Assembly: GCA_958295645.1 (NCBI GenBank)
Contig: OY282361.1
Span: 2,198,501-2,262,500 of the forward strand
Direction of reading: 5' to 3'
Source of the DNA: Longimicrobiales bacterium
Lineage (GTDB): Bacteria; Gemmatimonadota; Gemmatimonadetes; Longimicrobiales; Gaopeijiaceae
DNA length: 64,000 bases
Part shown: positions 12,131 to 52,794 of the stretch, piece by piece
Numbering within the stretch: the first letter of the stretch is position 1
Layout: the number at the start of each line of letters is the position of its first letter
Position numbers and translations under genes: made by a program
The notes under the pieces: model-generated
Told to the model about the DNA's origin: nothing
Seen by the model: only the letters and a program-made list of their open reading frames with translations
Database searches by the model: none

Positions 12131-12361
12131 TTGGGCGCAGGATGCCGTTCGCAGGGCCGCGGAGCTCATGGAGACATGCATCCGTCCCATGCGGCCATTT
12201 GCGCCTGCCGTCACGCAGGCGAACTTCGGATTCCCGCCCGTCGCGTACGCTTCCCGCGCTTTCCTCCGCCGTGACTTGCGCGGAAGCTTCCAGGAAAGTA
12301 GGATCAAATGGCCGCACCGCAAATCGCTCCACGCTCGCACCGCCTCTCGACCTGGAGACTC

Positions 12362-13471
12362 ATGTCCGACCGCGACCGGCAAGGAGAGGTTCTGATTCGG
12401 ACTCGAATCGGCCGGGCCGTGCTCGGTGATTCTCTCGACTACATGGCGGCGATGGACGACCACTCGGTTGATCTCATCGTCACCAGTCCGCCCTTCGGGT
12501 TACTTCGGAAGAAGGACTACGGGAACGAAGAAGCGGATCGCTACGTGGACTGGTTCCATGCCTTCGGCGAACAGTTCAAGCGCATTCTGAAGCCGCAAGG
12601 CAGTCTTGTCATAGACATCGGCGGGGCATGGAAGAAGGGAACACCGACACGAAGCCTGTACCACTTCAAGCTCTTGATCATGCTTTGCGAACAAGTCGGC
12701 TTCCACTTGGCCCAGGAATTCTACTGGTGGAACCCCTCCAAGCTCCCGACGCCGGCAGAATGGGTCAACATCAGGCGGGTGCGAGTCAAGGACGCGGTCA
12801 ATTCGGTTTATTGGCTGTCCCCCACCGAATGGCCGAAAGCCACGAACCGGCGAGTCCTCCATCCCTACAGCAACAGCATGCGTAGTTTGCTGAGAACCGG
12901 ATACAAGGCACAGAAACGACCTAGTGGACATAGCATCAGCACGAAGTTCACGCGCGACAACGGTGCTGCGATTCCACCCAATCTCATCGCTTTGGCCCAC
13001 ACCGAAAGCAACTCTCGCTACCAGCGCTACTGCAAGAGCCGTGGCATAAGTCCTCACCCCGCGCGTTTTCCAGCCGAGCTTCCCGAGTTGTTCATTCGAA
13101 TGCTGACCGACGAAGGAGATGCCGTGCTGGATCCGTTTGGCGGATCCTGCATTACTGGCGAGGTCTGCGAACGGCTAGGCCGCAACTGGGTCTGCGTGGA
13201 GCGCGTCGAAGAATACCTGGAAGGCGCGAAGGGGCGCTTCGACAAACCGGTTGCCCCCAAAGGAGCCAAGGACGTGGACGATCTCGGCAACTACTACAAG
13301 ATACCGAGACCCGACCTCCTCTGGAACGGCCCGCCCACGGAGCCGCTTGCGGCCGACGGCGGTCGACGACGTCCTCGGAGAATGCCAAACGCGGCGGACG
13401 AGACGCGTCCGATCGACGACAGCAAGGCTTTGCCGCCGGCCCAGGGCGACCTGCTGAGCGTGGAGCAATAG
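12362..13471 (+). CDS. Type II DNA methyltransferase, beta class (probably N4-cytosine)
   Basis: This 369-residue enzyme shows motif IV TSPPFGL (residues 41-47) near the N-terminus and motif I-like LDPFGGSCITGEVCERLGRNWVCVE near residue 258. That permuted order is typical of beta-class methyltransferases; SPP[FY] favours N4-cytosine, though N6-adenine members also exist. The start ATG at 12362 has a GGAG about 6 bp upstream. It converges with a putative restriction endonuclease gene 40 bp away, making a type II restriction-modification pair. The 231 bp upstream contain no gene I can support. Confidence 0.88.
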   Translation: MSDRDRQGEVLIRTRIGRAVLGDSLDYMAAMDDHSVDLIVTSPPFGLLRKKDYGNEEADRYVDWFHAFGEQFKRILKPQGSLVIDIGGAWKKGTPTRSLYHFKLLIMLCEQVGFHLAQEFYWWNPSKLPTPAEWVNIRRVRVKDAVNSVYWLSPTEWPKATNRRVLHPYSNSMRSLLRTGYKAQKRPSGHSISTKFTRDNGAAIPPNLIALAHTESNSRYQRYCKSRGISPHPARFPAELPELFIRMLTDEGDAVLDPFGGSCITGEVCERLGRNWVCVERVEEYLEGAKGRFDKPVAPKGAKDVDDLGNYYKIPRPDLLWNGPPTEPLAADGGRRRPRRMPNAADETRPIDDSKALPPAQGDLLSVEQ

Positions 13472-27010: not shown

Positions 27011-27616
27011 ATGGCTCCAGTGCGCTGGATTGCGGTTGCGTGGGTCGTTGGCGCGGGTGTGGCGATGTCTCCCGCCGGAGGGTCCCCCGCCGGAGCGTTC
27101 GGAAGCCGGGTCTCCGCGACTCCGGAGGAGCCAACCGTCGCGGCCAGGTGTTCCACGGCGGGCGTAGCCGGGCCGGAGTACTACCGCTTTCCGCTGGTCT
27201 CGACTCGGCGGGTGCCGGGCACTGGGCGAGCGGCGGGAACCGGCGAAGTGACGTTCTCCCCGTCGCCCTACGGCATCGCGCTGGGCGAAGACGGAAGCTA
27301 CGCCTACGACTTCACGATCCGCTTCGAGCGGTTGAAGCTGCCGAAGCAAGGGAGCTTCGTCGTGTGGACGGCGACCCCGGCGCTGGACCAGGTGGCGCTC
27401 GCCGGCGAGATGGCGGATCCGACGGCCTTCTCCGGGAAGGTGGCATGGAACAAGTTCCTGGTCGTCGTGACGCTGGAGCCCGAGTTCGACCCGGCCGCCG
27501 AGCTCTGGAGCGGCCCGGTCGTGATCCGAGGCATGTCCCGCAGCGGCATGATGCATACGATGGCCGGCCATGGGGCGTTCCAGCAGGAGAACTGTGCGGC
27601 CTACGGCTACGAGTAG
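27011..27616 (+). CDS. Exported hypothetical protein (RskA-like C-terminal domain possible)
   Basis: This 201-residue protein has an N-terminal hydrophobic segment (WIAVAWVVGAGVAMSPAGG). The mature region (DFTIRFERLKLPKQGSFVVWTATPALDQVALAGE and VVTLEPEFDPAAELWSGPVVIRGMSRSGMMHTM) vaguely resembles the extracytoplasmic domain of anti-sigma factors of the RskA kind or a small beta-sandwich. It is separated by 29 bp from the LVIVD protein and its 3' end overlaps the methyltransferase start, so it is probably cotranscribed. I do not assign a function. Confidence 0.65.
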   Translation: MAPVRWIAVAWVVGAGVAMSPAGGSPAGAFGSRVSATPEEPTVAARCSTAGVAGPEYYRFPLVSTRRVPGTGRAAGTGEVTFSPSPYGIALGEDGSYAYDFTIRFERLKLPKQGSFVVWTATPALDQVALAGEMADPTAFSGKVAWNKFLVVVTLEPEFDPAAELWSGPVVIRGMSRSGMMHTMAGHGAFQQENCAAYGYE

Positions 27617-28520
27617 CGAAGGGCTCGCCACCTTCGCGGACCTGTTCTGCGGCATTGGCGGGTTCCATGTCGCGGCCACGCAGGCTGGGCTCGCGGGGGT
27701 GTTCGCCTGCGACATCGACGCCGACGCCCGGCGCTGGTACGAAGCCAATTTCGGTCTCCGTCCGGCGGGCGACATCACGTCCGTGGACGCCGAGGCCGTG
27801 CCGGACCACGACATACTGTTCGCGGGCCTGCCTTGCCAGCCGTTCAGCATCATCGGCGCCCGGGCCGGACTGCTGGACAAGCGAGGCGGCCTCTTCGGAG
27901 AAACAGCCCGGATCATCGCGGCCAAGCGGCCTCGCGCCGTAGTGATCGAGAACGTCCGCCAGTTCACGACCAACCGAAGGGGCGAAGCCATTCGGTGGGT
28001 CGTCGAGACGCTGAACGACCTGGGCTACCACGTGGACTGGAAGGTGTTGAACGCCTTGGAATTCGGCCTTCCGCAGAAACGGGAGCGGGTCTTCATCGTG
28101 GCAAGCGAGGAACCGTTCGGGCAACGATTTCCATGGCCGAACGGCGGTGTTCCGATGGCGCCGTTGTCCTCGATCCTGGAGCCCAGCCCAGGGCCGGAGC
28201 ACTACGTGTCTCCGCGCATTCGCGAGAAGCGGGCAGCGCAGCACCGAGCCAAGTGCCGTCCTGCCGTCTGGCACGAAAACAAGAGCAGCAACATCTCCAG
28301 CCACCCCTACTCCTGCGCTCTGAGGGCCGGCGCCAGCTACAACTATCTGCTCGTGGACGGCGAGCGACGGTTCACCTCCCGCGAGCTCTTTCGGCTGCAG
28401 GGCTTCCCGGACTCGTTCGACGTCCCCCCGAAGACCTCTTTGGCGCGGAGACTCACCGGCAACGCGGTGGCCGTGCCCGTGGCGCGGGCGGTCATCCAAA
28501 GCGTCAAGCAAGCCAGCTAG
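27594..28520 (+). CDS. C5-cytosine DNA methyltransferase, no cognate endonuclease visible
   Basis: This 308-residue enzyme shows the family motifs in order: I FADLFCGIGGF, IV FAGLPCQPFS with the catalytic Cys, VI VIENVRQF, VIII QKRERVF, IX/target region RELFRLQGFP and X GNAVAVPVA. The GTG at 27594 has AGGAGA 3 bp upstream and overlaps the previous gene by 23 bp; an ATG at 27570 is the alternative. It lies between exported proteins, and its stop directly abuts the next ATG. With no endonuclease beside it, it may be a solitary epigenetic or anti-restriction methylase. Confidence 0.9.
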   Translation: MRPTATSSEGLATFADLFCGIGGFHVAATQAGLAGVFACDIDADARRWYEANFGLRPAGDITSVDAEAVPDHDILFAGLPCQPFSIIGARAGLLDKRGGLFGETARIIAAKRPRAVVIENVRQFTTNRRGEAIRWVVETLNDLGYHVDWKVLNALEFGLPQKRERVFIVASEEPFGQRFPWPNGGVPMAPLSSILEPSPGPEHYVSPRIREKRAAQHRAKCRPAVWHENKSSNISSHPYSCALRAGASYNYLLVDGERRFTSRELFRLQGFPDSFDVPPKTSLARRLTGNAVAVPVARAVIQSVKQAS

Positions 28521-34203: not shown

Positions 34204-36390
34204 ATGATCACCACCCAAGGCCGTTTCGACTCCTTGAGGGCCGCCAAGACGTGGCGCGCCGACGCCGAGACCTCCCGCCCGGCGGATCCGGGCTACCTGG
34301 AACGCCTGTTCGGCGAGAACTGCTTCGGCATCCCGCAGATGCGCGCATTTCTGCCCGGCGACGTCTTCGATCGTCTCACCGCCACGATCCGCGACGGGAG
34401 CCGCTTGGACCCCTCGGTCGCGGGCGTGGTGGCCGAGGCCATGAAGAAATGGGCGCTTGCGCGCGGGGCCACGCACTACACGCACTGGTTCCAGCCTCTC
34501 ACCGGGAGCACGGCCGAGAAGCACGACTCCTTCCTCAAGGTCGGCGCCGAGGGCAAGGCGATCACCTCGTTCGGCGGAGACGAGCTGGTCCAGGGCGAGC
34601 CCGACGCCTCGTCGTTTCCGTCCGGCGGACTCCGCGCCACCTTCGAGGCGCGCGGCTACACGGCCTGGGACCCGACCTCTCCCGCGTTCATCCTCGAGGG
34701 CGAGGCGGCGACCTTCCTGTGCATCCCGACGGCCTTCTCCAGCTGGGCCGGGGACAGCCTCGACAAGAAAATCCCCCTCCTCCGGTCCATGGACGCGCTG
34801 GATCGGGCCACCCGTCGCGCGCTCCGGCTGTTCGGCGAAGAGAGCAGGCGCGTCACCGCCAGCTTGGGTCCCGAGCAGGAATTCTTCCTCATCGACCAGG
34901 AGTTCTACTACCGCCGGCCCGACATGATGACCGCCGGACGGACGCTCTTCGGCGCGGAGCCGCCGCGGGGCCAGGAGCTCGACGACCACTACTTCGGCTC
35001 GATCCACGACCGCGTGCTCGCGTTCATGCAGTCGGTGGAGATCGCGCTGTACCGGCTCGGCGTCCCGATGAAGACCCGGCACAACGAGGTCGCGCCGCAC
35101 CAGTTCGAGATGGCGCCGGTGTACGAGAACGCCAACGTGGCCTCGGACCACCAGCAGCTCATGATGCGCATTCTGGAGAAGAACGCGCGCAAGTACGGCT
35201 TCGTGTGCCTGCTGCACGAGAAGCCCTTCGCGGGGCTCAACGGGAGCGGCAAGCACCTGAACTGGTCGTTCGGAACCGCCGACCGGAACCTGCTCGAACC
35301 GGGCGACACGCCGCACGACAACGAGAAGTTCCTGTTCTTCTGCACCGCCGTGCTGCGGGCGGTCGAACGCCACCAGGATCTGCTGCGGGCCTCCATCGCG
35401 AGCGCCGGCAACGACCACCGCCTCGGCGCCAACGAGGCTCCGCCGTCCATCATCTCGGTGTTCTTGGGCGACCAGCTTCAGGACATCTTCGAACAGCTCG
35501 AGCAGTCCGGCTCGGCTCGTGCGGGGCGCCGCGAGGGACTGCTGGGCCTCGGGGTGGACGTGTTGCCCGACCTCCCCAAGCATTCCGGCGACCGGAACCG
35601 CACCTCGCCCTTCGCGTTCACGGGCAACAAGTTCGAGTTTCGGGCGCTCGGCTCGTCCATCAGCGTGTCGTTCCCGGCCACCGTCTTGAACACGGTGGTG
35701 GCCGAGTCCATAGACGAATTGGCCGGACAGCTGGAGACCGCCTTCGACTCCGGGGCCGACCCGAAGGACGCGCTTCGCAAGCTTCTGGCGCGGGAGGCCA
35801 GGTCCTTCAAGCGAATCGTCTTCAACGGCGACAACTACTCCTCCGACTGGGCGGCCGAAGCCGAGCGGCGCGGACTGCTCAATCTGCGGACGGCGGTGGA
35901 GGCGCTCCCGGAGATGACGTCGCCCAAGAACCGCGCGCTCTTCGAGAAGTTCGGCGTCCTGGCTCCGCGCGAGCTCGAGTCGCGCCTCGAAGTGCGCATG
36001 GAGCAGTACTTCATCAGGGTGAACATCGAGGGCGAGACCGCCGCCAACATGGCCCGCACCATGATCCTGCCCGCCGCGGTTCGGTATCTCGACCAGCTGC
36101 TCTCGGCCTGCGAGAAGGCCGAGAACGCCGGGGTGCCGTCGTCGGGCGTCTCCTCTTCGGCCCACCGAATCGCGGCGCTGGTGGACGATCTCGCGGCGTC
36201 CCTGGACGTGCTGGACGCCCAGAACGCGGAACTCGGAGGCAACGACATGGCGTCCAAGACCATCCATATGAGGGACAACGTGATCCCGGCCATGAACGCG
36301 GTGCGCGAGGTGGTGGACCGCCTGGAGGCCGTGGTCCCCGACGACATGTGGCCCCTGCCGAGCTACCGCGACATGCTGTTCGTGAAGTAG
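34204..36390 (+). CDS. glnN: Glutamine synthetase type III
   Basis: This 728-residue cytosolic enzyme converts glutamate, ammonia and ATP to glutamine. The length and motifs identify GSIII: ASLGPEQEFFLID (glutamate/metal-binding strand), HNEVAPHQFEMAPVYENANVASDHQQ, FAGLNGSGKHLNWSF and SPFAFTGNKFEFRALGSS. The C-terminal helical extension (ENAGVPSSGV through DDMWPLPSYRDMLFVK) is typical of the GlnN type. It follows an AT-rich intergenic region shared with the divergent DUF234-like gene. No nitrogen-regulatory partner is adjacent. Confidence 0.96.
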   Translation: MITTQGRFDSLRAAKTWRADAETSRPADPGYLERLFGENCFGIPQMRAFLPGDVFDRLTATIRDGSRLDPSVAGVVAEAMKKWALARGATHYTHWFQPLTGSTAEKHDSFLKVGAEGKAITSFGGDELVQGEPDASSFPSGGLRATFEARGYTAWDPTSPAFILEGEAATFLCIPTAFSSWAGDSLDKKIPLLRSMDALDRATRRALRLFGEESRRVTASLGPEQEFFLIDQEFYYRRPDMMTAGRTLFGAEPPRGQELDDHYFGSIHDRVLAFMQSVEIALYRLGVPMKTRHNEVAPHQFEMAPVYENANVASDHQQLMMRILEKNARKYGFVCLLHEKPFAGLNGSGKHLNWSFGTADRNLLEPGDTPHDNEKFLFFCTAVLRAVERHQDLLRASIASAGNDHRLGANEAPPSIISVFLGDQLQDIFEQLEQSGSARAGRREGLLGLGVDVLPDLPKHSGDRNRTSPFAFTGNKFEFRALGSSISVSFPATVLNTVVAESIDELAGQLETAFDSGADPKDALRKLLAREARSFKRIVFNGDNYSSDWAAEAERRGLLNLRTAVEALPEMTSPKNRALFEKFGVLAPRELESRLEVRMEQYFIRVNIEGETAANMARTMILPAAVRYLDQLLSACEKAENAGVPSSGVSSSAHRIAALVDDLAASLDVLDAQNAELGGNDMASKTIHMRDNVIPAMNAVREVVDRLEAVVPDDMWPLPSYRDMLFVK

Positions 36391-36445
36391 GTTGCTTCGC
36401 GAAGCAGGCGCTGTGCGTCCCTCGATACGACGAGCGAGAACGATT

Positions 36446-37633
36446 ATGAGCAAGATGGCGACGAGCATGAGAAGATTGGCCTTGGCGGGCATCGCGGCGG
36501 CCGCCGGTTGTGGAGAGGTCGGAACGGAAGCCGGGGCGGAGGCGGCCTCGCTGGGCCAACCGGAAGTGGCCTACTCGGAAGCCTTCGCGGTCGTTCAGAC
36601 GGTGCGGGAAATGCCGGACGGGCGCGTGCTGGCGGCCGATCCGCTGGCCCAGGTTCTGGTTCTCGTGGACATGGACGCGGGCACGGCCGACACGCTGGGC
36701 GCAGTCGGCCAGGGCCCGGACGAATACCAGCAACCCGACGCGGTGTGGCCCCTGCCCGGCGGCAAGACCCTGCTGGTCGACCTGGGCAACGCGCGCCTGA
36801 CGGAGATGAGCGCCGACCTGGAGTTCGGAGACACGCGCCCATACATGATCGGCGAACTCGATTTTGGCCGGCCGCCCATTCTGGCCCTTCCGTCTGCCGT
36901 GGACAGCGAGGGAAGGGTCTACGTTCGGGGCTTCGGCGACATGACAAGCATCCCGGATTCCGTGCAGGTGCTTCGCCTCGATCTGGCGAGCGACGCCGTG
37001 GATTCGATGGCAACGGTCAAGACGCCGGAGAGGAGGAGAACGACGACGGGCAGCGGCAACAACCAAAGCACGTCGATCACTCAGGTCCCGTTGTCGCCCG
37101 TGGATGCTTGGGGGGTCGCCGAGGACGGCCGCGTAGTCGTCGCTCGTTCCGCGGACTACCGCGTGGAATGGCTGATGCCGGACGGCTCGCGGATCCAGGG
37201 TCTGCCCGTCCCCTACGAGCCGATCCCGATCGGCCAAGCCGAGAAGGAAGATTGGCAGGCCGCCCAGTCCGAAGCCGGCGGCGGCATGAGCCTCAGCGTG
37301 ACCGCGATCGGCGGAGCGGTGACGATGCAGGCGTCGCGGGGCGGGCCGAGCAGCGGGCAGGACCTCGACCAGTTGCCCTGGCCGGAAACGCTGCCCCCCT
37401 TCTACGGCAACACGATCTTGGTCGATCCCCGCGGCCGCGCGTGGGTGCGCGCTCACGTGGGCGCGTCGGGAGCCCCGCCCGCCTACGATCTCTTTGGCCC
37501 GTCGGGCGACCGGGAAGAGCGGATGGAGCTCCTCCCGGGCCGGCGCATCGTCGCGTTCGGCGACAGCAAGGTCTACGTCGTGCGAATGGACGATCTGGGG
37601 ATGCAGTTCTTGGAGCGCTACGCCTTGCCGTAA
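36446..37633 (+). CDS. Propeller-type lipoprotein
   Basis: This 395-residue protein has lipoprotein signal MRRLALAGIAAAAGC. The body has NHL/6-bladed propeller patterns (AVVQTVREMPDGRVLAADPLAQVLVLVDMDAGTADTLGAVGQGPDEYQQPDAVWPLPGGKTLLVDLGNARLTEM). It is similar in design to the protein at 30375-31475. The ATG at 36446 with GAG-rich leader is chosen over a TTG at 36392. It ends 45 bp before the convergent AcnX small-subunit gene. Confidence 0.8.
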   Translation: MSKMATSMRRLALAGIAAAAGCGEVGTEAGAEAASLGQPEVAYSEAFAVVQTVREMPDGRVLAADPLAQVLVLVDMDAGTADTLGAVGQGPDEYQQPDAVWPLPGGKTLLVDLGNARLTEMSADLEFGDTRPYMIGELDFGRPPILALPSAVDSEGRVYVRGFGDMTSIPDSVQVLRLDLASDAVDSMATVKTPERRRTTTGSGNNQSTSITQVPLSPVDAWGVAEDGRVVVARSADYRVEWLMPDGSRIQGLPVPYEPIPIGQAEKEDWQAAQSEAGGGMSLSVTAIGGAVTMQASRGGPSSGQDLDQLPWPETLPPFYGNTILVDPRGRAWVRAHVGASGAPPAYDLFGPSGDREERMELLPGRRIVAFGDSKVYVVRMDDLGMQFLERYALP

Positions 37634-37678: not shown

Positions 37679-38131
37679 TCAGCTTCCCGCTGGACTCGAT
37701 CCAACGCCGACCATGAGCCGCCCGTCCGCCACTTCGGCCCACTTGCCCTCGCATTCGCCGAGCCGCTCGACCCCCGCCTTGCCCACTTCGAGAAACGGGA
37801 TCGTCGGACATCCCAGTTCCTCCGCGACCAAGACGCCCAAGACAAGGATCGCGTCGGGTTCCCCCACCACCACGGCAGCCGGCGCAGCCCGATTGCGGAG
37901 CAACTCCAGCATGACCGCGCTGGACGAACTGGACCCGATCGTCCGCTCCATCGCCAAGACGCATCCGCCCAGCGTCGCCCCGTGGCGCGGATGACGCGGA
38001 TCCGTAACGACTCCCGACACCGGATCGACACCGCCCCAAAAGCTCAGCGGCTCGCCGACGACAAGAAGCGGGCCGCTAGCGGCGCCGCTGTGGAGTTGGC
38101 GGCCGGTTAGGTGGATTGGGGTGTTGGGCAA
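37679..38131 (-). CDS. AcnX small (swivel, DUF126) subunit
   Basis: This protein of about 150 residues carries the swivel-domain signature GAASGPLLVVGEPLSFWGGVDPVSGVVTDPRHPRHG, SLAMERTIGSSSSS-like ATP-independent loop (LAMERTIGSSSSSAVMLELLRN) and AEELGCPTIPFLEV. With the large subunit (39984-41297) it forms an aconitase-superfamily hydro-lyase, e.g. cis-3-hydroxyproline dehydratase in bacteria. The only nearby start is TTG (38129-38131), which lies inside the 3' end of the TOPRIM-like gene (25-bp overlap), as though the native start were displaced by an insertion. The subunits are normally adjacent; here they are 1.85 kb apart. Confidence 0.88.
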   Translation of the reverse strand: MPNTPIHLTGRQLHSGAASGPLLVVGEPLSFWGGVDPVSGVVTDPRHPRHGATLGGCVLAMERTIGSSSSSAVMLELLRNRAAPAAVVVGEPDAILVLGVLVAEELGCPTIPFLEVGKAGVERLGECEGKWAEVADGRLMVGVGSSPAGS

Positions 38132-38670
38132 AGCCGTCGCAGGGTATCGAGAAAGACTGTGAAACTGCGGGATCTGTTGTCACGGAGGGACAGTTCCCTC
38201 CCGATCGCTCTCGATCCCAGAAGCTTCTGATAGCGGTCGTCCGTGAGTCTCGAAAGCTCCTTGGCAGGTGCGGCGATGTCGTCGGGATTTCGATATTTTC
38301 TCTTCTTCTCATGCTTAACGAGATTGGACAACCCGAGTCCTTTCTCAACGGCGTCCAAGTCGCCGAAATACCAACTTTCCAATTCGCGACACGCGATTCT
38401 GACGATGCATTCAGGTCTTCCCGCGTCGTCGCATTTCTTCCTGAGCCTGCTCTTGACCACCCTGCAATCGTCGTGATCCTGATCTCTCAAGACTACGAAG
38501 ATGCTGTCGCGATTCCAGCGGCGCAATCGACGAACGATGTTCTTCTCCATATCATGCTTTCCTTCAAACACAATATACGTCACGTCCACGCTAGGCGTCA
38601 GCACCCGAGGCAAGAGCCCTTTCAACATCTCCTTGGCAGATCGCTCCTCCAGGAAGAAGACCAGGTTCAC
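38107..38670 (-). CDS. DUF4276-family TOPRIM-like nuclease, partner of the upstream ATPase
   Basis: This 187-residue protein has TOPRIM-like residues: LEERS (7-11), VVLRDQDHDD (59-68) and ACRELESWYFGD (93-104). Acidic residues in these positions bind metal in TOPRIM nucleases. It is coupled by a 4-bp ATGA overlap to the SMC/OLD-like ATPase, a gene order seen in anti-phage systems such as PARIS, though the nuclease family differs. Its base composition is visibly more AT-rich than flanking genes (e.g. 38281-38340). Its 3' end overlaps the AcnX swivel gene. Confidence 0.82.
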   Translation of the reverse strand: MNLVFFLEERSAKEMLKGLLPRVLTPSVDVTYIVFEGKHDMEKNIVRRLRRWNRDSIFVVLRDQDHDDCRVVKSRLRKKCDDAGRPECIVRIACRELESWYFGDLDAVEKGLGLSNLVKHEKKRKYRNPDDIAAPAKELSRLTDDRYQKLLGSRAIGRELSLRDNRSRSFTVFLDTLRRLCPTPQST

Positions 38671-39857
38671 GTCTCGGGATCAATGCCGGTGAAAAAGCCC
38701 TGTCTCCAAAGATGTCCCATCTTGCCTCCGTCGTCCATGTAGGCTCTGACTTGTTCGTCGTCCTGAGCTCGCTTTATCTCAGTGTAGCCTTTCACCTTTC
38801 GAAGGCAATAGACTTCTTCTAGTCTAGCTGCGTTGAGAAAATCCGGCGAATGCGTGGACACGAATACTTGCCCGCCACGATTCGCATACAGTCGGAATTC
38901 TTCCGCTAGTTCTTCCAGTAGAGTCGGATAGAGCTGATTCTCGGGTTCTTCCACACACATCAGTGGATGAGGGTTGGGATCGTACAGCAAAGTCAGATAG
39001 GCGAGCATCTTGATGGTGCCGTCGGACACGTGGCGGGCGAGAAACGGCCTCCGGAAGGCTTCGTCCTGGAACTTCAACAGTATCCGTCCTTCCTCCGTCT
39101 CCTTGGCCTCCACTTGGGAGATGCCCGGTACACGGGCTTGCAATCGGTCGAGAATCTTGGAGAAAGTATCGGGATGATACTGATGGAGATACTCGACGAC
39201 AAGCGGAAGATTGTCTCCCTCGCGAGACAAGTGTTCAGCGTATCCAGAGTCTTGTTCGCGTCGAGCTTCTCTTATGTGAAAATCCGAAATGTGCCAGCGC
39301 TCGACCAAGTTGCCCAGCGCGACGACGGCCGGGAAGCGCTCGAATTGCGCCAGCCCCTTGATCGCCAAGAGATCGGGCGACTTCAGGTTTTGGGTGTCGC
39401 GCTCGAGCTCCTGCGCTCTAGCCACGTCCGCCACTTCGTTCGTAACGGCAAAGCCTTTTCCGTTGTTGAAGTCGAGGAAGTGCCAGGGTTTCCCGTATCG
39501 AGAGCGGCGATACCGCAAGACTTCACGGCTCACCACCGGTCTTCCGCCAACCTCGTCGATGAAGAGCAAGTAGGTCGCGAGCGGCTCGCCGGCCTTGGGC
39601 CGATACTTGATTTCGATCTCGATCGGCCCCTCCGCGCCACGACTTCGAACCTCGGAGAACCCCCGGCTTCCTCCGAGCTTGGACAGAGCAACCTTGACGT
39701 TGGTGTTCATGGCGTCGCGGAGGAACCCGAAGACCGACAGCAAAGTGGACTTGCCCGTGCCGTTGGCGCCGACGAGGACGGCTAGTCGCGGGAGGTCGGG
39801 CAACGTGACGTCCTTGAAGGCCCGAAAGTTCTTGATTCGGATCTGCTCAATGCGCAT
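38667..39857 (-). CDS. SMC/OLD-like AAA ATPase (AAA_21-type)
   Basis: This 396-residue ATPase begins IEQIRIKNFRAFKDVTLPDL and has Walker A VGANGTGKST. Walker B lies in LMCVEEPENQLYP, the switch histidine in VSTHSPDFL, and a signature-like region SDGTIKMLAYLTLL is typical of OLD/RecF-like ABC ATPases. The ATG at 39855-39857 starts the canonical beta strand; a longer in-frame start lacks family similarity. It forms a coupled pair with the TOPRIM-like gene, placed between the two AcnX subunit genes. Such pairs commonly sense phage infection. Confidence 0.88.
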   Translation of the reverse strand: MRIEQIRIKNFRAFKDVTLPDLPRLAVLVGANGTGKSTLLSVFGFLRDAMNTNVKVALSKLGGSRGFSEVRSRGAEGPIEIEIKYRPKAGEPLATYLLFIDEVGGRPVVSREVLRYRRSRYGKPWHFLDFNNGKGFAVTNEVADVARAQELERDTQNLKSPDLLAIKGLAQFERFPAVVALGNLVERWHISDFHIREARREQDSGYAEHLSREGDNLPLVVEYLHQYHPDTFSKILDRLQARVPGISQVEAKETEEGRILLKFQDEAFRRPFLARHVSDGTIKMLAYLTLLYDPNPHPLMCVEEPENQLYPTLLEELAEEFRLYANRGGQVFVSTHSPDFLNAARLEEVYCLRKVKGYTEIKRAQDDEQVRAYMDDGGKMGHLWRQGFFTGIDPET

Positions 39858-39983
39858 GGAATCGCTTCGCGGGATGGCGTTTGGCACGCACACGAGGGCG
39901 TTTCGGCGAACCTGCTCTATTGTAGCGAAGACGCCCGCCGGGCATCAAATCGCCTCCAGCACCTCCGCGTCCGGCCCGCTTCG

Positions 39984-41297
39984 TCAGCTCCACAGAGTCT
40001 CGTCGCGAACCACGCGGCCTCGGACGGCCGAGACAACGCAGTCTTCCAGGCTGCCGTAGACCACGCCGTAGCCGGTGTTGGCGGGAGTATAGTGTGCGAA
40101 CTTGCCGGAGTTGGTCATGAGGACGCCGCCCCGGGCGGGGAGAATCGGCGTCACGACGACGCACGTGTCCACGACGACATGCACGCCGGCGTCTTCGAGG
40201 CGCTGGAGGCGGCCGGCTTCTTGCAGACGTCCGTGCTCGTGCCTGCCGGTGCAGACGTAGAAGGGGACGTCGAACGAGGTGGCGGGAAGCAAGGCTTCGA
40301 GGTCGGCGAACTCGCGGAGAGAGAAGTGCGGACTGCCCAGGGCGACGGCGTCGATCGAGCCTGCGCGGGTGGTGCTCAAGTCGTCCCGAACGCGGCGGAG
40401 CTCGGCAGGCTCGGGCTTCAGGACCTCGTGCGGGGGCAGGCCGCCCAGCGCGGCGTCGAGGGTGGGCGCTTCCGGAGTCGCGCCTTCGACGTGGAAGAGG
40501 CCTACCGCGCCTGAAGAGGCCGCTGCGGCGCCCATGGCCTTGAGCTGGTCTTCGGTCGCGGTCGTGGGAAGACCCGCGATCACGGCCACGCGGTCGGCGG
40601 CGGCGCGGCCCAGCCAGGTGCCGAGGACTGGATAGAAGACGTCGCGCCTCTTCAGAGCGGGGGCGACGGCGCAGGTGTCCACGACCACGGTGGCCCGGCG
40701 TCCTTCGTCCAGATGGAGCCCGGTGCGGGGCGCCCGTCCAGCCAGGGCGCAACAGATGTCCATGAAGTCGCCGTAGCGGTTCGTGCGAGCGCCCAAGACC
40801 GAGTTGGCGAAGGCGACGGCGTTGCTCTCGCCCCAGGCCACGTGCTCGCCCCGGCGGGGCCGGTGTCCCGCTTGGTACGGCGCGCATGTCCAGGTAGGGC
40901 GGCATCCCATCGATTCGTAGGCCCGCATTTGCCGGAGAGCCATGTCGCGGCGGCGGCCCGCAGCCCGAACCCGATCCGGATGAAGCAGGTCCAGTGCGCC
41001 CACGTTCAGAGTCGAAGGAACGCGCACGGTCCCGCCGAGCCCCACCAAGCGCTCGGCGAACTCCACGCCGCCGTCGCCGTGGTACAGGCATCCGTCGATA
41101 TGGGCGGATGCGATCTTCACCAAGTCGCCGGCGCCCAGAATCTCGCCCATCCGCACCACGATCCTCATGGCTAGCGCCACGGCCGGGCCGGCGCTGCCTT
41201 CGAGCATCGCCTGTTCCTCGGAGGAGAGGCGCAGGCGGGCTCCGGGTTCCCGGTCTGGGCCGGGCGTCCTATCGTGCGTTGTCCTTTGGCGCTTCAT
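39984..41297 (-). CDS. AcnX large (catalytic) subunit
   Basis: This 437-residue aconitase-superfamily protein carries the AcnX signature TPILPARGGVLMTNSGKFAHYTPANTG near the C-terminus and earlier blocks HIDGCLYHGDGGVEFAERL, TWTCAPYQ and ESNAVAFANSVLGARTNRYGD. Cysteines in MDICCALAG and VDTCVVV may bind an Fe-S cluster. In bacteria the two-subunit enzyme can dehydrate cis-3-hydroxy-L-proline; the actual substrate here is inferred. The ATG at 41295-41297 has AGGA about 7 bp upstream. It is divergent from the M14 peptidase gene, 87 bp away. Confidence 0.93.
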   Translation of the reverse strand: MKRQRTTHDRTPGPDREPGARLRLSSEEQAMLEGSAGPAVALAMRIVVRMGEILGAGDLVKIASAHIDGCLYHGDGGVEFAERLVGLGGTVRVPSTLNVGALDLLHPDRVRAAGRRRDMALRQMRAYESMGCRPTWTCAPYQAGHRPRRGEHVAWGESNAVAFANSVLGARTNRYGDFMDICCALAGRAPRTGLHLDEGRRATVVVDTCAVAPALKRRDVFYPVLGTWLGRAAADRVAVIAGLPTTATEDQLKAMGAAAASSGAVGLFHVEGATPEAPTLDAALGGLPPHEVLKPEPAELRRVRDDLSTTRAGSIDAVALGSPHFSLREFADLEALLPATSFDVPFYVCTGRHEHGRLQEAGRLQRLEDAGVHVVVDTCVVVTPILPARGGVLMTNSGKFAHYTPANTGYGVVYGSLEDCVVSAVRGRVVRDETLWS

Positions 41298-41384
41298 GGC
41301 AGTTCCTGCCGCGGGCGCAGGGCCGGAGGCGGCGAGAGGCCGGGGACGGGCGAGAGGCCGAGATGCTCGCAAGGAGGGGGCGGC

Positions 41385-42644
41385 ATGCAGTCGGACACAG
41401 CCATGTATAGTCGGGAGGCCGCGGCTATTGCGGCAAGCGGCGACGGCGTTGCGGCGATGGAGCAGATCGGGCGGTCGCGGGAAGGGCGTCCCATTCGGGC
41501 ATGTCGCATCGGCGACGGACCGCTTCGGGTCAGCCTGCTGGGCGGATGCCATGCGGACGAGCCGGTGGGTCCTCGCTTTCTGGACTGCTTGGCCCGGTAC
41601 TTGAGCAGTCCGGCGGGCGCAGAACTCCGGAGGATCGCGACATGGCACATCGTCCCCCATCTCAACCCCGACGGGGCCGTCCGCAACGCGCAGTGGCAGA
41701 GGCCGGGGGCGACCCGGTACGACTTCGTCTCGTATCTGCGCCATCGAGTTCGCGAGTTGCCCGGCGACGACGTCGAGTTCGGATTCCCGGCGGGGCTTGG
41801 CGGCGGCGGTCGTACCGATCCAGGCGCAGGGGCCGACGCTGGAGGCCCGACGAGGGGCAGCCCCGCGTCGGAGGCCGGCGCGCGTCCCGAGAACTTGGCC
41901 GCGGCGGCGTTCTGGAGCGAAGCCGGACCGTTCGATCTTCACGCCAGCCTTCACGGAATGAGCGTTGCGGCGGGACCCTATTTCCTGTTGGAGCGGTCGT
42001 GGTGGCCCCGCTTCGGGGAGATGGCCCGCTTCCTGGCCGGGGAGGTTCGCGGCGCGGGCTACGTCCTGCACGACGTGGAGAGGCATGGAGAAAAGGGATT
42101 CCACCGTCTCGCGCCGGGCTTCTGCAGCCGCCCGGACTCCCGGGCGATGAAGCGCCACTTTCTCGACCGAGGCGAGCCGGATGTGGCGGCGCGTTTCCGG
42201 CCCAGCTCGATGGAGGCGATTCGGGCATTGGGCGCCGATCCGCTCACGCTGGTCAGCGAGATGCCGCTGTTCGTCCTGCCGGGGGTGGGCGAGACGTTGG
42301 GGCCTCCGGATCCCGCGCTGGTACGCTGGGGCGAGCGAATAGCGGAATGGGACGCCCGCATCCAGCGAGCGGCGGCGGGCTTGGTGCGGGCCCGAGAGGC
42401 GGGGATCGAGGGCGCGGCGCTGGTCCGGGACGCGGGGCTCGAGGGCGCGAGCACGGGCGGGGCGGCCTCGGGCGACCGGGAGGCTGACCGGGAAGGCGCT
42501 CGGGAGGTCCGCTGCGAGGCCGACGAAGTGCGCCGGGAAGCCGACGAGGCGGGGCTGGCGCCGATGCCCGTGGCTCATCAGATGCGCTTCCAGTGGGCCT
42601 TCATCCGGGCAGGTTTGGCGGTCGTGCGACGCGAGCGGGCCTGA
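41385..42644 (+). CDS. M14-family zinc carboxypeptidase-like protein
   Basis: This 419-residue protein shows GGCHADEPVG, the HxxE zinc motif of M14 peptidases, a conserved WHIVPHLNPDGAVRN segment and FDLHASLHG for the third zinc ligand. There is no signal peptide. An Ala/Gly-rich insert (about 150-175) and a charged low-complexity C-terminal section (ADREGAREVRCEADEVRREADEA) are unusual. AAGGAGG (41371-41377) lies 7 bp before the ATG, a near-perfect Shine-Dalgarno. Peptide or amide hydrolysis is likely; the substrate is unknown. Confidence 0.87.
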   Translation: MQSDTAMYSREAAAIAASGDGVAAMEQIGRSREGRPIRACRIGDGPLRVSLLGGCHADEPVGPRFLDCLARYLSSPAGAELRRIATWHIVPHLNPDGAVRNAQWQRPGATRYDFVSYLRHRVRELPGDDVEFGFPAGLGGGGRTDPGAGADAGGPTRGSPASEAGARPENLAAAAFWSEAGPFDLHASLHGMSVAAGPYFLLERSWWPRFGEMARFLAGEVRGAGYVLHDVERHGEKGFHRLAPGFCSRPDSRAMKRHFLDRGEPDVAARFRPSSMEAIRALGADPLTLVSEMPLFVLPGVGETLGPPDPALVRWGERIAEWDARIQRAAAGLVRAREAGIEGAALVRDAGLEGASTGGAASGDREADREGAREVRCEADEVRREADEAGLAPMPVAHQMRFQWAFIRAGLAVVRRERA

Positions 42645-42659
42645 GACGACGGAGTGCGT

Positions 42660-42813
42660 CGCGATGGCGCGGGAGACATCCGAGGGCGTCGCGACGGCGC
42701 GGGAAACGACCGAGCCCGACGCGACCGCGCCCGAGACGACCGATCCCGCCGTGATTGCGCCCGACGCAACCGCGCTGGAGACTCGCCGTAGTTCTCGCCG
42801 CAAACTACCTTGA
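42660..42813. repeat. Degenerate tandem repeat between the M14 gene and thiC
   Basis: GC-rich units such as GACGCGACCGCGCCCGAGACG and variants recur about every 30-36 bp. A 49-codon frame (ATG at 42664, TGA at 42811-42813) reads as Thr/Ala/Glu/Asp repeats and is probably not a gene. No TPP riboswitch elements (e.g. CTGAGA with an ACC-TGAT region) are seen in this leader. Confidence 0.5.
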
Positions 42814-44685
<1,872 letters not shown>

Positions 44686-46200: not shown

Positions 46201-46764
46201 TCAAACAAGTGCTGCGATCCGTTCGGCCAGGACACCGAAGTCTTCGGGACATCTTTGCCGAATCGCCTCAACACGACGGGCCGCTTCTTCGCCCAACGGC
46301 TTCCGTCCGCCGCCTGGATGATCCGCCAGTCCACGCTCCTGCGCAAGCGGCTCGAAGTATCGTTCCTTGACCGACACCTCGGCCCGTATCTTGGACCACC
46401 TCCATCGCTTGGATAGCTTCAGGCCGGCGAGCATCCAGGTTTCCATTTCTTCCCACGCGTTCTCTGCAAAGAAGTCTCGGCCGTCTCCAAACTCCTCTTC
46501 GATCGCGTCGAGTCTTTGCCGCCGGTTCTCGTCACCGTCCCTGTCCACGCACAGGACGAAGAGATCGATCATGCCGTCGTAGCGCTCGACGATCTCGGCT
46601 AGGCGCTCGCTCTTGAGGGCCTCGCCGATGCCGCCCAGCAACGGGTCCTGGCACACCACAACCTTGGCCCGCGGCCTGTCCAGTCTTCGAAGCAGTCGCT
46701 GGAACAACGGTCGGAGAATGTACTGGTCGTTGCGGAAGTCCTCGGGGATGATCAACACCTTCAA
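46201..46764 (-). CDS. TOPRIM-like small nuclease, partner of the ATPase at 46761-48056
   Basis: This 187-residue protein has IIPEDFRNDQ (E8), an acidic LCVDRDGDENRR (71-82) and ENAWEEMETWMLAG (101-114). It has the E, DxD and E positions of TOPRIM-type nucleases, but the sequence differs from the DUF4276 protein at 38107-38670, so it represents a separate family. The ATGA overlap with the ATPase gene indicates coupling. It lies between an amidohydrolase and a VPS10 protein gene. Confidence 0.72.
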   Translation of the reverse strand: MKVLIIPEDFRNDQYILRPLFQRLLRRLDRPRAKVVVCQDPLLGGIGEALKSERLAEIVERYDGMIDLFVLCVDRDGDENRRQRLDAIEEEFGDGRDFFAENAWEEMETWMLAGLKLSKRWRWSKIRAEVSVKERYFEPLAQERGLADHPGGGRKPLGEEAARRVEAIRQRCPEDFGVLAERIAALV

Positions 46765-48056
46765 TCGACGACCTCCGGCTGGTCGTTCTGGTCATTCAAG
46801 AAGACCGCGTCTTCCAGCCACCCCGATTCATGAAGCCTGCCGAGGCCCTGAGTGGACCGCAGTTTCTCAACTTTGGGAAGACTTGCGACCTGCCGTATGA
46901 CGGCATCGTCGGTATCGGGTCGGCGGCAGACGACGGCGGTGTTCGCAAACGTCTCGTCACCGACCATCGCCAGCAGTCCTGGAGAATGAGTGGTCGTCAG
47001 TATCTGCGTCTGGCCGCGCTTTGTTTGGCTCTCGATCAGATCAAGCAACAACCGCAGGCGGGACGGGTGTATGCCGGTGTCGATCTCTTCGAAGAAATAA
47101 AACGCCGCGGGGTTCTTTCCCAGCAGAGCCGCCAAGATGGCCAGGAATCGCAAGGTGCCGTCCGAAGCAGAATAGGCTGATATTCTCCGACCGTTTCTCT
47201 CTACGAATATCAACTGAACTCGGCCGGTTACCTGATCCTTGACGAATTCAAAATCTCGCACGTCCATCGGGGTCAGTTCCCGGGTCCATCCGATCAAGGC
47301 CTCGCGACGCTCCAAATCGTCGCACATCTCTTTCAACACCGTCGGCAAGTTGTCACCGCGGTCGCCTAAAATCGTCTGTCCAGGAAAAGACGGCTGCCGC
47401 AACCTCGTAGGCGATGGATCGAGAAACCGCATGTTGGAGAAGGCATCGACGACTGCCTTGGCTCGCTCCTTGTGAACTCGCAATATCTTATTGTGCTCTT
47501 TCAGTTGCGTCAACGCCGGTTGATCTAGACGCACCGCAACTCGGTGGCCATACTTTCTTTGCGACCGAGACTTGCCCATGCGCAACAACAAGTGCGTGTC
47601 GTCGTCTTGATCGCGCACAGGATCCGGGGCTTCTGGATGACTGTCGTAGACGACGGCCCCGGATCTAGAGCTGAATGGCAGTTGTCCTAGGCGCTCCTTC
47701 GATACGTGATACTCGCTGTTCTTGCTTGCACCGATTTCGTACTTGCTTGCCTGGACGTCCGCGCTTCGTCCGTCGTTCACCTCGATCGCGATCTCAAACC
47801 AATCTTCACCGGCTCGCGCGACTTCGTTTGGTGCGCCGCGTATCCCCTCCCACTGGACTTCTCCGCCCGACCCGTATCTTTCGCCCAGAATCTCGGCGAG
47901 CGTATACCCCCGGCCCACGCCGTGAAGGAAACGCAGTGCGTCCCGGATGTTGCTCTTGCCGCTGGCGTTGGCCCCGGCCACGACCGTGAAGGGACCCATT
48001 CGCAAGCTCTCGCAAGCGAAGTTCTTGAAGTTGGTCAGCCGAAGCGACTTGATCAT
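46761..48056 (-). CDS. SMC/OLD-like AAA ATPase (AAA_21-type), second pair
   Basis: This 431-residue protein starts with IKSLRLTNFKNFACESLRMG and has Walker A VAGANASGKS. Walker B is FYFFEEIDTGIHPSRL and the switch is TTTHSPGLLAMVG; SDGTLRFLAILAALL is the signature-like segment. A long central insertion (about 90-200, with KYGHRVAVRLDQPALTQLKEHNK) holds predicted helices. Partner of the TOPRIM-like gene. GC content looks lower than that of the flanking genes. It starts 51 bp beyond the VPS10 stop on the same strand. Confidence 0.88.
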   Translation of the reverse strand: MIKSLRLTNFKNFACESLRMGPFTVVAGANASGKSNIRDALRFLHGVGRGYTLAEILGERYGSGGEVQWEGIRGAPNEVARAGEDWFEIAIEVNDGRSADVQASKYEIGASKNSEYHVSKERLGQLPFSSRSGAVVYDSHPEAPDPVRDQDDDTHLLLRMGKSRSQRKYGHRVAVRLDQPALTQLKEHNKILRVHKERAKAVVDAFSNMRFLDPSPTRLRQPSFPGQTILGDRGDNLPTVLKEMCDDLERREALIGWTRELTPMDVRDFEFVKDQVTGRVQLIFVERNGRRISAYSASDGTLRFLAILAALLGKNPAAFYFFEEIDTGIHPSRLRLLLDLIESQTKRGQTQILTTTHSPGLLAMVGDETFANTAVVCRRPDTDDAVIRQVASLPKVEKLRSTQGLGRLHESGWLEDAVFLNDQNDQPEVVD

Positions 48057-51441: not shown

Positions 51442-51661
51442 CTACGGCGACATCGAACATCCTGTCTTACGTGCCCCGCCCCGTTGCATCGTTCGGCATC
51501 CGAGTTCGGCCACCCGCTCGACGAAGTACCGCGCACTGGGGCAACACGGATGCTCGGCAGCGACACGCAAACCGACCGACTCTAGCCATTCCTTTGAATC
51601 GTTCACTCTCAATAACTCGTCTATCCGCCGGGCCTTCTACTATAAAGCCAACGCTCACCAT
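51442..51661 (-). pseudogene. Frameshifted and truncated TOPRIM-like nuclease gene
   Basis: The frame opens VSVGFIVEGPADRRVIESERFK, the TOPRIM start of the DUF4276-like partners. After AAA (51595-51593), dropping one G gives FK-EWLESVGLRVAAE, which fits such proteins, whereas the actual frame reads FKGMARVGRFAC. So a single extra G at 51591-51592 breaks the gene. The restored frame stops at 51442, far short of about 187 residues. The start overlaps the ATPase stop by 7 bp. Confidence 0.75.
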
Positions 51662-52794
51662 GGCAAACCGCCGTCAAACAAATTGGCCAGCCACGCCTTC
51701 TCCATGCCAAATCCGTCAAAATCGGATTCCTCGAGGTTCCCAGAAGCCACCTGTTTCATTGAAGTGCGGCCGTCCTTCTTGTCGACGAGAACGAGTTCTG
51801 GCAAACGAAGATGGCGAACGACGGATTCGCTGTGCGTGGTGATCCAAATCGGCCTCACCGTGCTTGCCATCTCCCTGAGGAAGCCGATGAACTCTCCGAT
51901 GGCCAAGGGGTGCAATCCGCGTTCCGGCTCCTCGATCAACGTCAGGCAATCCCGATCGCGCCGGTCGAGAATCGCTACCAAGAGGCTGAGCGCGTAGAGC
52001 GTCCCGTCGGACATCAGTCGCGCCGGAAAGCGCTTCTTCGTTCCTCGTTCCTTGAATAGAACAGCAATGTGACCATCTATACGCGTTCGTTGCGTCTCGA
52101 TTTTCTCGACGCCAGGTACCAACATTTCAATCCATTCGCTAATCTGGGTTCGCAAATGTGAATCCGATTCCATGCGACTCAGAACCGATGCCAAGTTGCT
52201 TCCTCTGCCGTTGAGGCTGGAAGGGTCGGTATGGGACGCGTCGGGTTCCTTGGCAGATTGCGGATCGATCCTATACAGCGTAATGCGGCTCAGCAGGCGC
52301 GAGAGAGGATGGGTCGGGAACAGAAACAATGCCGAACGCGTGGAAGGCAATGTTCTGACTGGCTCTTCAGCGAGACCGACGGCCACTTTCACTTCGTCGT
52401 CAGGCCGGTGCACCAAACTAGTGCCGTTGTGTCGTAGTGTTTCCGTAATTCGAGGAAAATCATGCAACTCGTCGATGGTCAAGTTGTATCGAGCCACCGC
52501 TGACGGAGGCGCGAATGCGGGCAATGTCCAGTCCATCGAGAACTCGAATCGCCGGTTGTACGGTGCGTAGCGCTTGGCTGAGCGAATGCTTTCGGCACCG
52601 CCATGCGCGCGCAATGCGGCTTCGACATCGACCCGTACTACGCGCCCCACGAAGTCCAACGCGTCTAAGAAATTGCTCTTGCCGGAGCCGTTCGGGCCTG
52701 CGAAGACAACGAACGGGCCGAGCTTCTGGATCTCCAGCTGGTCGATGCTCTTGTAGTTTGTGATCTTCAGATCGAAGCTGGTGCTGTCAGACAT
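51655..52794 (-). CDS. SMC/OLD-like AAA ATPase (AAA_21-type), third pair, partner nuclease broken
   Basis: This 379-residue protein starts DLKITNYKSIDQLEIQKLGPFVVFAGPNGSGKS (Walker A), with Walker B LTLIEEPERGLHPLAIGEF, the switch ITTHSESVVRHL and the signature-like MSDGTLYALSLLVAILDRR. It appears intact, while its downstream nuclease partner at 51442-51661 is frameshifted and short. The ATG (52792-52794) lies 6 bp after the stop of the exported-protein gene, so it may be read from that promoter. Confidence 0.87.
   Translation of the reverse strand: MSDSTSFDLKITNYKSIDQLEIQKLGPFVVFAGPNGSGKSNFLDALDFVGRVVRVDVEAALRAHGGAESIRSAKRYAPYNRRFEFSMDWTLPAFAPPSAVARYNLTIDELHDFPRITETLRHNGTSLVHRPDDEVKVAVGLAEEPVRTLPSTRSALFLFPTHPLSRLLSRITLYRIDPQSAKEPDASHTDPSSLNGRGSNLASVLSRMESDSHLRTQISEWIEMLVPGVEKIETQRTRIDGHIAVLFKERGTKKRFPARLMSDGTLYALSLLVAILDRRDRDCLTLIEEPERGLHPLAIGEFIGFLREMASTVRPIWITTHSESVVRHLRLPELVLVDKKDGRTSMKQVASGNLEESDFDGFGMEKAWLANLFDGGLPW

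What the first reader, a model, noticed from the sequence alone, without database searches (positions are those of the whole stretch)
37679..41297. ATPase/TOPRIM pair inserted between the two AcnX subunit genes
Large and small AcnX subunits are normally encoded side by side. Here 1.85 kb with an AAA ATPase and a DUF4276 protein separates them. The small subunit now begins at a TTG inside the 3' end of the TOPRIM-like gene (25-bp overlap), so it may depend on that gene for translation. This could tie a metabolic enzyme to a defence module, an arrangement that would favour retention.
Basis: partly seen in the sequence, partly recalled or inferred. Interest (0 to 1): 0.6.

Follow-up and report, generated by a model that had tools for sequence, protein, structure and literature searches.

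The report
Defence gene pair inside enzyme operon
A two-gene cassette resembling a split OLD-type anti-phage system (ATPase plus nuclease-like protein) has inserted between the genes for the two halves of one metabolic enzyme, and the second half now starts inside the cassette's last gene; related bacteria lack the insertion, and the same cassette type sits inside a secretion operon in unrelated bacteria, so operon junctions may be exchangeable homes for immune genes.

Summary
In window 37679-41297 (minus strand) the order is AcnX large, AAA_21 ATPase, DUF4276, AcnX small. The small-subunit gene starts at a TTG and overlaps DUF4276 by 25 nt; no other canonical start precedes its conserved core. 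The layout is derived: in all 63 other genomes of the family with both genes on one contig, large and small lie -1 to 119 nt apart (here 1873). The insert is low-GC and matches PADLOC candidate system HEC-01 (E 7e-192, 1.7e-76). DUF4276 folds like the TOPRIM domain of OLD and Gabija nucleases and keeps its invariant E/D/D residues. The small subunit evolves at a normal rate, so it is probably still used. Its ancestor overlapped the large-subunit stop by 10 nt; the insertion apparently swapped its coupling partner for DUF4276.

It is not a one-off. In one Methylococcaceae genus, HEC-01 sits between gspG and gspH of the type II secretion operon in three of seven species, a PD-T4-4-type pair occupies that junction in two, and two are empty. 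Restriction-modification pairs inside metabolic operons, even between glutamate synthase subunits, are published, so this is a new variant of a known kind. Co-expression, defence activity and retention are untested.

The parts
39984..41297 (-). AcnX large subunit gene (437 aa)
   Evidence: PF04412 E 2e-140; matches AtAcnX 7cnq E 2e-85 and TkAcnX 7cnr; 74-80% identical to closest family members
39982..39993 (-). relict of the ancestral large/small overlap: GTGGAGCTGAC, the old small-subunit GTG start stranded upstream of the insert
   Evidence: identical to the junction CTGTGGAGCTGAC(C/G)GG of several close relatives
39957..39982 (-). left end of the insert; 26 nt that match the reverse complement of small-subunit codons at 38065-38090 at 20 of 26, including 11 exact
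   Evidence: about 1e-4 of random window 26-mers match as well; possible footprint of the joining event, found post hoc
39919..39948 (-). promoter-like site TTGATG-18-TACAAT in the 126-nt leader of the ATPase gene
   Evidence: consensus match only
39847..39993 (-). short open frame from the relict small-subunit start, ending 11 nt inside the ATPase gene (48 aa); possible leader, speculative
38667..39857 (-). AAA_21 (OLD/ABC-type) ATPase of the HEC-01 pair
   Evidence: PADLOC PDLC04144 E 7e-192; Walker A GANGTGKST and EEPEN/STHSP motifs conserved in A2; up to 77% identical relatives
38107..38670 (-). DUF4276 TOPRIM-fold protein of the HEC-01 pair, 4-nt overlap with the ATPase
   Evidence: PADLOC PDLC04143 E 1.7e-76; invariant E8, D63, D65 in 66 sequences; AlphaFold2 pLDDT 95; OLD nuclease C-terminal region Z 11.7
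38107..38113 (-). right junction CTAACC: DUF4276 stop codon TAA lies where the large-subunit stop TGA lay relative to the small subunit; CTGAC/CTAAC could be a 5-bp target duplication
   Evidence: chance of a 4/5 match about 0.015
37679..38131 (-). AcnX small subunit gene (150 aa), new TTG start inside DUF4276, 25-nt overlap
   Evidence: PF01989 E 1.5e-23; only canonical start before the conserved core; not accelerated; region of the AtAcnX general-base Ser70 kept as GSSSSS
34204..37633 (+). conserved neighbours downstream: glutamine synthetase III (34204-36390) and a protein without a Pfam match (36392-37633)
   Evidence: same order in G090 and G054
41274..44685 (+). conserved neighbours upstream: M14 peptidase (41274-42644) and a conserved gene at 42817-44685 (ThiC by recognition, not scanned)
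   Evidence: same order in G090 and G054

Best explanation
A horizontally acquired HEC-01 cassette (ABC-type ATPase plus a TOPRIM nuclease-like protein, in effect a split OLD nuclease) was joined into the overlap between the AcnX large and small genes by non-transposase recombination. The old small-subunit GTG start stayed upstream, fused to the insert. The small gene kept its body and gained a TTG start in the last 25 nt of DUF4276, so its translation is now most likely coupled to DUF4276 instead of to the large subunit. The cassette brings a promoter-like site of its own. Shown: derived insertion, junctions, open frames, normal evolutionary rate of the small subunit, predicted fold of DUF4276. 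Inferred: the defence function, coupled translation, co-transcription, and that loss of the cassette would tend to damage the enzyme and so favour keeping it.
For: 63 of 63 relatives are contiguous. The same neighbourhood with an empty site is present in G090, G054 and G011. Low GC of the insert. PADLOC HEC-01 matches for both genes. Homology to HEC-01 DNA of L111 runs from 39851 to 38149 and stops near the gene ends. Ancestral 10-nt overlap and junction sequence. TTG is the only usable canonical start. Relative rate of the small subunit is normal: mean identity 0.617 to genus g37, against 0.642 between g37 and g12; large 0.778 against 0.768. DUF4276 fold matches the OLD and GajA TOPRIM domains. 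HEC-01 also sits inside other operons.
Against: No transcript or protein data. An internal promoter-like site in DUF4276 (38601-38572) could express the small gene alone. No Shine-Dalgarno is seen before the TTG, so how well it starts is unknown. The genome is a single unnamed assembly and no second genome searched carries this insertion. No test of HEC-01 activity was found in the papers held.
Confidence: 0.75

Rival explanations
1. The small subunit is expressed independently from a promoter inside the cassette, so the insertion is neutral and the defence pair and the enzyme are not tied together.
For: Promoter-like sites inside the ATPase (39202-39174) and DUF4276 (38601-38572) genes on the same strand.
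Against: No start codon other than the TTG in the overlap and no ribosome-binding site before it. The consensus scan is weak evidence in itself.
Confidence: 0.2
2. Assembly or binning artefact: a foreign contig end joined at this place.
For: Only one genome carries it; GC shift at the borders.
Against: Single 2.9 Mb contig; both sides continue in conserved order; precise gene overlaps and an intact small-subunit frame across the junction are not expected of a misjoin.
Confidence: 0.04
3. The pair is not a defence system but a regulator or maturation factor of AcnX recruited into the operon.
For: Co-operonic position in this genome.
Against: The pair is absent from the AcnX junction of all 63 relatives with both subunits on one contig, and elsewhere lies beside DNA methylase and helicase genes or in secretion operons.
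Confidence: 0.04
4. The cassette moves as a transposable unit with target duplication (CTGAC/CTAAC).
For: 5-bp near-duplication at the two junctions.
Against: No transposase in the insert and no terminal inverted repeats of the cassette; the 26-nt inverted match is to host small-subunit codons.
Confidence: 0.12

Closest known systems
HEC-01 (Hma-embedded candidate, PADLOC; Payne et al. 2024 preprint doi 10.1101/2024.01.29.577857, known here only through reference 15 of PMC12988326; that HEC-01 itself is described there is recalled, not read)
   Same: Both proteins match HEC-01 profiles over full length; related pairs in G011 and G240 lie between a DUF1156-type methylase gene and a DUF499-like gene
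   Different: Here it is embedded in a metabolic operon, between two subunits of one enzyme, not in a defence operon
PabI restriction-modification pairs inserted in metabolic operons (PMC4615327, PMC10273834)
   Same: An immune gene pair on the same strand between glutamate synthase large and small chain genes or in a histidine operon; competing systems at one operon site; operon maintenance proposed
   Different: An R-M pair, not an OLD-like ATPase/TOPRIM pair; start-codon capture is not described in the passages read
OLD family nucleases and Gabija GajA
   Same: ABC-type ATPase plus TOPRIM domain; DUF4276 model matches 6nk8 (Z 11.7, 3.6 A, 166 aligned) and, less strongly, GajA 8j4t (Z 7.6)
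   Different: Two separate polypeptides here; no GajB-type helicase gene next to it
[quoted passage not shown]
   Same: Separate large and small subunits as in type II; sequence closer to type I in PDB searches; catalytic regions conserved
   Different: Substrate of this bacterial two-gene form unknown; one of the two nearby Fe-S cysteines of AtAcnX does not align with a Cys
PD-T4-4
   Same: AAA ATPase plus small partner occupying the same gspG/gspH junction as HEC-01 in sister species
   Different: Different family; not present at AcnX

Membership tests
HEC-01 | ATPase component matching a HEC-01 profile over its length | tested here: met
   PDLC04144 E 7e-192, residues 13-407 against 1-395 of 395
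HEC-01 | DUF4276 partner adjacent | tested here: met
   PDLC04143 E 1.7e-76; 4-nt overlap with the ATPase
HEC-01 | Embedded in an Hma operon (origin of the name, not part of the PADLOC profiles) | tested here: not met
   Flanked by AcnX genes; Hma-like context seen in G011, G240 and G397. Filed as HEC-01 by protein families only
HEC-01 | Anti-phage activity | not testable with these tools
   No assay; candidate status in the literature
OLD-type nuclease | TOPRIM fold with acidic E...DxD residues | tested here: met
   Model pLDDT 95, Foldseek best hits OLD (E 1.3e-4), VIA Z 11.7; E8, D63, D65 invariant
OLD-type nuclease | ATPase and TOPRIM in one chain | tested here: not met
   Two genes; hence 'works like a split OLD', not filed as OLD
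OLD-type nuclease | Nuclease activity | not testable with these tools
   No assay
Operon-inserted immune gene pair (as for PabI R-M) | Same-strand pair between functionally linked genes, empty site in relatives | tested here: met
Operon-inserted immune gene pair (as for PabI R-M) | Imposes operon maintenance by killing on loss | not testable with these tools
   No assay; nothing found that says HEC-01 is addictive
AcnX | Both AcnX domains with catalytic regions kept | tested here: met
   PF04412, PF01989; aligned with 7cnp/7cnq including the GS motif of Ser70 and the NSGK(F/Y)AHY motif

The most novel reading that the evidence does not exclude
Junctions inside conserved housekeeping operons are recurrent, exchangeable slots for compact immune cassettes: HEC-01 at AcnX large/small here; HEC-01, a PD-T4-4-type pair or nothing at gspG/gspH in seven species of one genus; HEC-01 between a CbbQ/NorQ-type ATPase gene and a VWA gene in a gammaproteobacterium. 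Translation of downstream housekeeping genes may be captured by the cassette, which would tie immunity to host functions.
Probability: 0.5. Interest if true: 0.72.

Novelty: new variant of a known kind. Interest (0 to 1): 0.55.

Why it matters
Searches for immune genes look in defence islands and mobile-element hotspots; cassettes tucked between housekeeping genes are easily missed. A slot with known empty, HEC-01 and PD-T4-4-type states (gspG/gspH) and a start-codon capture (AcnX) make it possible to test directly whether operon embedding stabilises defence genes, how they move without a transposase, and whether host enzyme output is changed by the immune cassette.

Tried and rejected
Ancestral layout: rejected, 0 of 63 relatives. 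Degrading small subunit: rejected, no rate increase. Long target duplication, as reported for some R-M insertions: none found, 5 bp at most. Transposon: no transposase or terminal repeats in the insert. Other ATPases of this type in the same genome (877 kb, 542 kb and weaker ones) as further operon insertions: the loci read lie mostly between genes of mixed orientation, so they were not used as support. Solved relatives of DUF4276 by sequence: none. An early note of a 13-nt ancestral overlap was wrong: it is 10 nt (L047 3817-3826). HEC-01 by name in papers: nothing that describes the system. The 2010 paper on mobile R-M forms is not held. L163's VWA protein had no NCBIfam match, so CbbO/NorD identity is a suggestion from its CbbQ-type neighbour.
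Full report
WHAT IS THERE. On the minus strand the window carries AcnX large (39984-41297), an AAA_21 ATPase (38667-39857), DUF4276 (38107-38670) and AcnX small (37679-38131). The ATPase start is taken as the ATG at 39857, because the HEC-01 profile begins there (residue 13 of the longer ORF matches profile position 1). ATPase and DUF4276 overlap by 4 nt (GTGA); DUF4276 and the small subunit overlap by 25 nt. The small subunit has no ATG, GTG or TTG between the upstream in-frame stop and the TTG at 38131, and the next in-frame canonical start is at residue 38, past the conserved SFWGGVD motif.

IS IT DERIVED. In the bacterial family of this genome, 121 genomes were searched with each subunit. 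In 64 of them both genes lie on one contig and strand. The distance from the last aligned codon of the large gene to the first aligned codon of the small gene is -1 to 119 nt in 63, and 1873 nt in the window's genome. The neighbourhood is the same in G090 and G054: glutamine synthetase III, the gene at 36392-37633, AcnX small, AcnX large, M14 peptidase and the gene at 42817-44685. The insertion therefore happened on the lineage of this genome. Its GC is 0.53-0.57, against 0.68-0.70 for the small and large genes.

THE JUNCTIONS. Most close relatives read CTGTGGAGCTGA at the junction, where TGA stops the large gene and GTG starts the small gene, an overlap of 10 nt. In the window the left side keeps GTGGAGCTGAC and then departs; the right side reads CACCTAACCGGC, where CTAACCGGC corresponds to CTGACCGGC of several relatives. 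So the old GTG start is stranded upstream, and the DUF4276 stop TAA sits where the large-subunit stop sat relative to the small gene; the change CTG to CTA is silent in the small-subunit frame. CTGAC/CTAAC could be a short target duplication (chance of a 4/5 match about 0.015). The first 26 nt of the insert match the reverse complement of small-subunit codons at 38065-38090 at 20 of 26 positions, reached by about 1e-4 of random 26-mers; this was picked out of a list of many repeats, so it is only a hint of a templated joining event. No transposase or cassette terminal repeats were seen. DNA similarity to the closest HEC-01 locus (L111) spans 39851-38149, and the last residues of the DUF4276 model are its only low-confidence part, in keeping with a junction-derived tail.

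WHAT THE CASSETTE IS. Both proteins match PADLOC HEC-01 profiles. A scan of GTDB genomes with an ATPase alignment found 509 stretches encoding relatives; the best 80 span many phyla, the closest 77% identical in a gammaproteobacterial MAG. In 66 DUF4276 sequences E8, D63 and D65 are invariant. The predicted structure (pLDDT 95) has the OLD nuclease C-terminal region as best match (Foldseek E 1.3e-4; VIA Z 11.7, 3.6 A over 166 residues), then GajA. By architecture it works like a split OLD nuclease; nuclease and anti-phage activity are inferred. The paper held says that several HECs, among them HEC-06, were active in assays; it does not speak of HEC-01.

IS THE ENZYME STILL USED. The small subunit is on average 0.617 identical to genus g37 and 0.616 to g12, against 0.642 between g37 and g12; the large subunit gives 0.778, 0.757 and 0.768. 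To outer genera the small subunit is no less conserved than that of other genera (0.580 against 0.535-0.571). Motifs corresponding to the general base Ser70 and the substrate-binding Lys530 of AtAcnX are kept. So the small gene is probably translated, which needs the TTG or a non-canonical start. Neither this TTG nor the ancestral-type GTG in G011 has a Shine-Dalgarno match, so a start coupled to the preceding gene is likely in both, with the partner changed from the large subunit to DUF4276. A promoter-like site (39948-39919) in the leader and others inside the cassette leave transcription open.

IS IT UNIQUE. [quoted passage not shown] the tight neighbours that were tested are mostly DNA methylase and helicase genes of Hma-like kind. 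L171 and L175 (Methylococcaceae) differ: HEC-01 lies between gspG and gspH of a type II secretion operon. In the seven held species of that genus, G422, G423 and G425 have HEC-01 there; G428 and G426 have another AAA ATPase plus partner at the same junction, matching PD-T4-4 in the copy tested (G426; E 4e-112 and 3e-18); G427 and G424 have gspG and gspH about 110 and 90 nt apart. G426 and G423 also carry an ATPase pair with a HEC-01B-like partner just before gspF. L163 has HEC-01 between a CbbQ/NorQ-type ATPase gene and a VWA gene; no empty relative was checked there. Embedding in non-defence operons has thus happened more than once.

WHAT IS KNOWN. PabI restriction-modification pairs lie between glutamate synthase large and small chain genes and in histidine operons of Helicobacter and Campylobacter, with competition between systems for one operon site and proposed operon maintenance. 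The AcnX case is the same kind of event with a different immune family and with capture of the downstream start codon. Hence 'new variant of a known kind'.

HOW IT MOST LIKELY WORKS. Shown: insertion, junctions, open frames, conservation, predicted fold. Inferred: HEC-01 defends as an ATP-controlled nuclease; its translation drives the small subunit; deleting the cassette without care would lower AcnX. The last step, that this favours retention, is a hypothesis; with one genome it cannot be tested here. The gspG/gspH slot, where cassettes differ between sister species and are missing in two, warns that embedding need not prevent loss.

Noticed in passing
L204, L205, L206, L207, L208, L209, L210 (genus of G422): gspG/gspH junction of a type II secretion operon holds HEC-01 in 3, a PD-T4-4-type pair in 2 and nothing in 2 of 7 species; a second variable site lies just before gspF.
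   Followed up: partly
L163:5921-10903: HEC-01 between a CbbQ/NorQ-type ATPase gene and a VWA gene, a pair of the kind that is normally adjacent; empty relatives not checked.
   Followed up: partly
L046 and L101 (G011, G240), L108 (G397): Closest family relatives of the pair are embedded between a DUF1156-type methylase gene and a DUF499-like gene; in G397 ATPase and DUF4276 ends appear joined in one shortened frame.
   Followed up: partly
window 46201-48056 (-): Low-GC ATPase matching PDC-M07A (E 4e-68) with a 187-aa partner without any family match, overlapping by 4 nt.
   Followed up: no
window 51655-52794 (-): Another HEC-01A-type ATPase (PDLC04176 E 9e-126), low GC, with no partner recognised.
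   Followed up: no
window 7362-10081 (-): Low-GC pair matching PDC-M28 B and C (E 1e-130, 5e-172).
   Followed up: no
window 12308-13471 (+) and 27570-28520 (+): Type II-like DNA methyltransferases; the second also matches DrmMII and DruM profiles.
   Followed up: no
L045:6051-7606 (G000 877 kb): Second HEC-01 ATPase of the same genome (57% identical) whose DUF4276 neighbour is shortened to 64 aa.
   Followed up: partly
G000 whole genome: 15 stretches match the HEC-01 ATPase at E up to 0.001 in a 2.9 Mb genome (some are pieces of one gene), more than in any of the 38 relatives searched alongside.
   Followed up: no
window 39847-39993 (-): The stranded small-subunit start opens a 48-codon frame that ends 11 nt inside the ATPase gene, so large gene, relict frame, ATPase, DUF4276 and small gene form an unbroken chain of overlaps.
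   Followed up: partly
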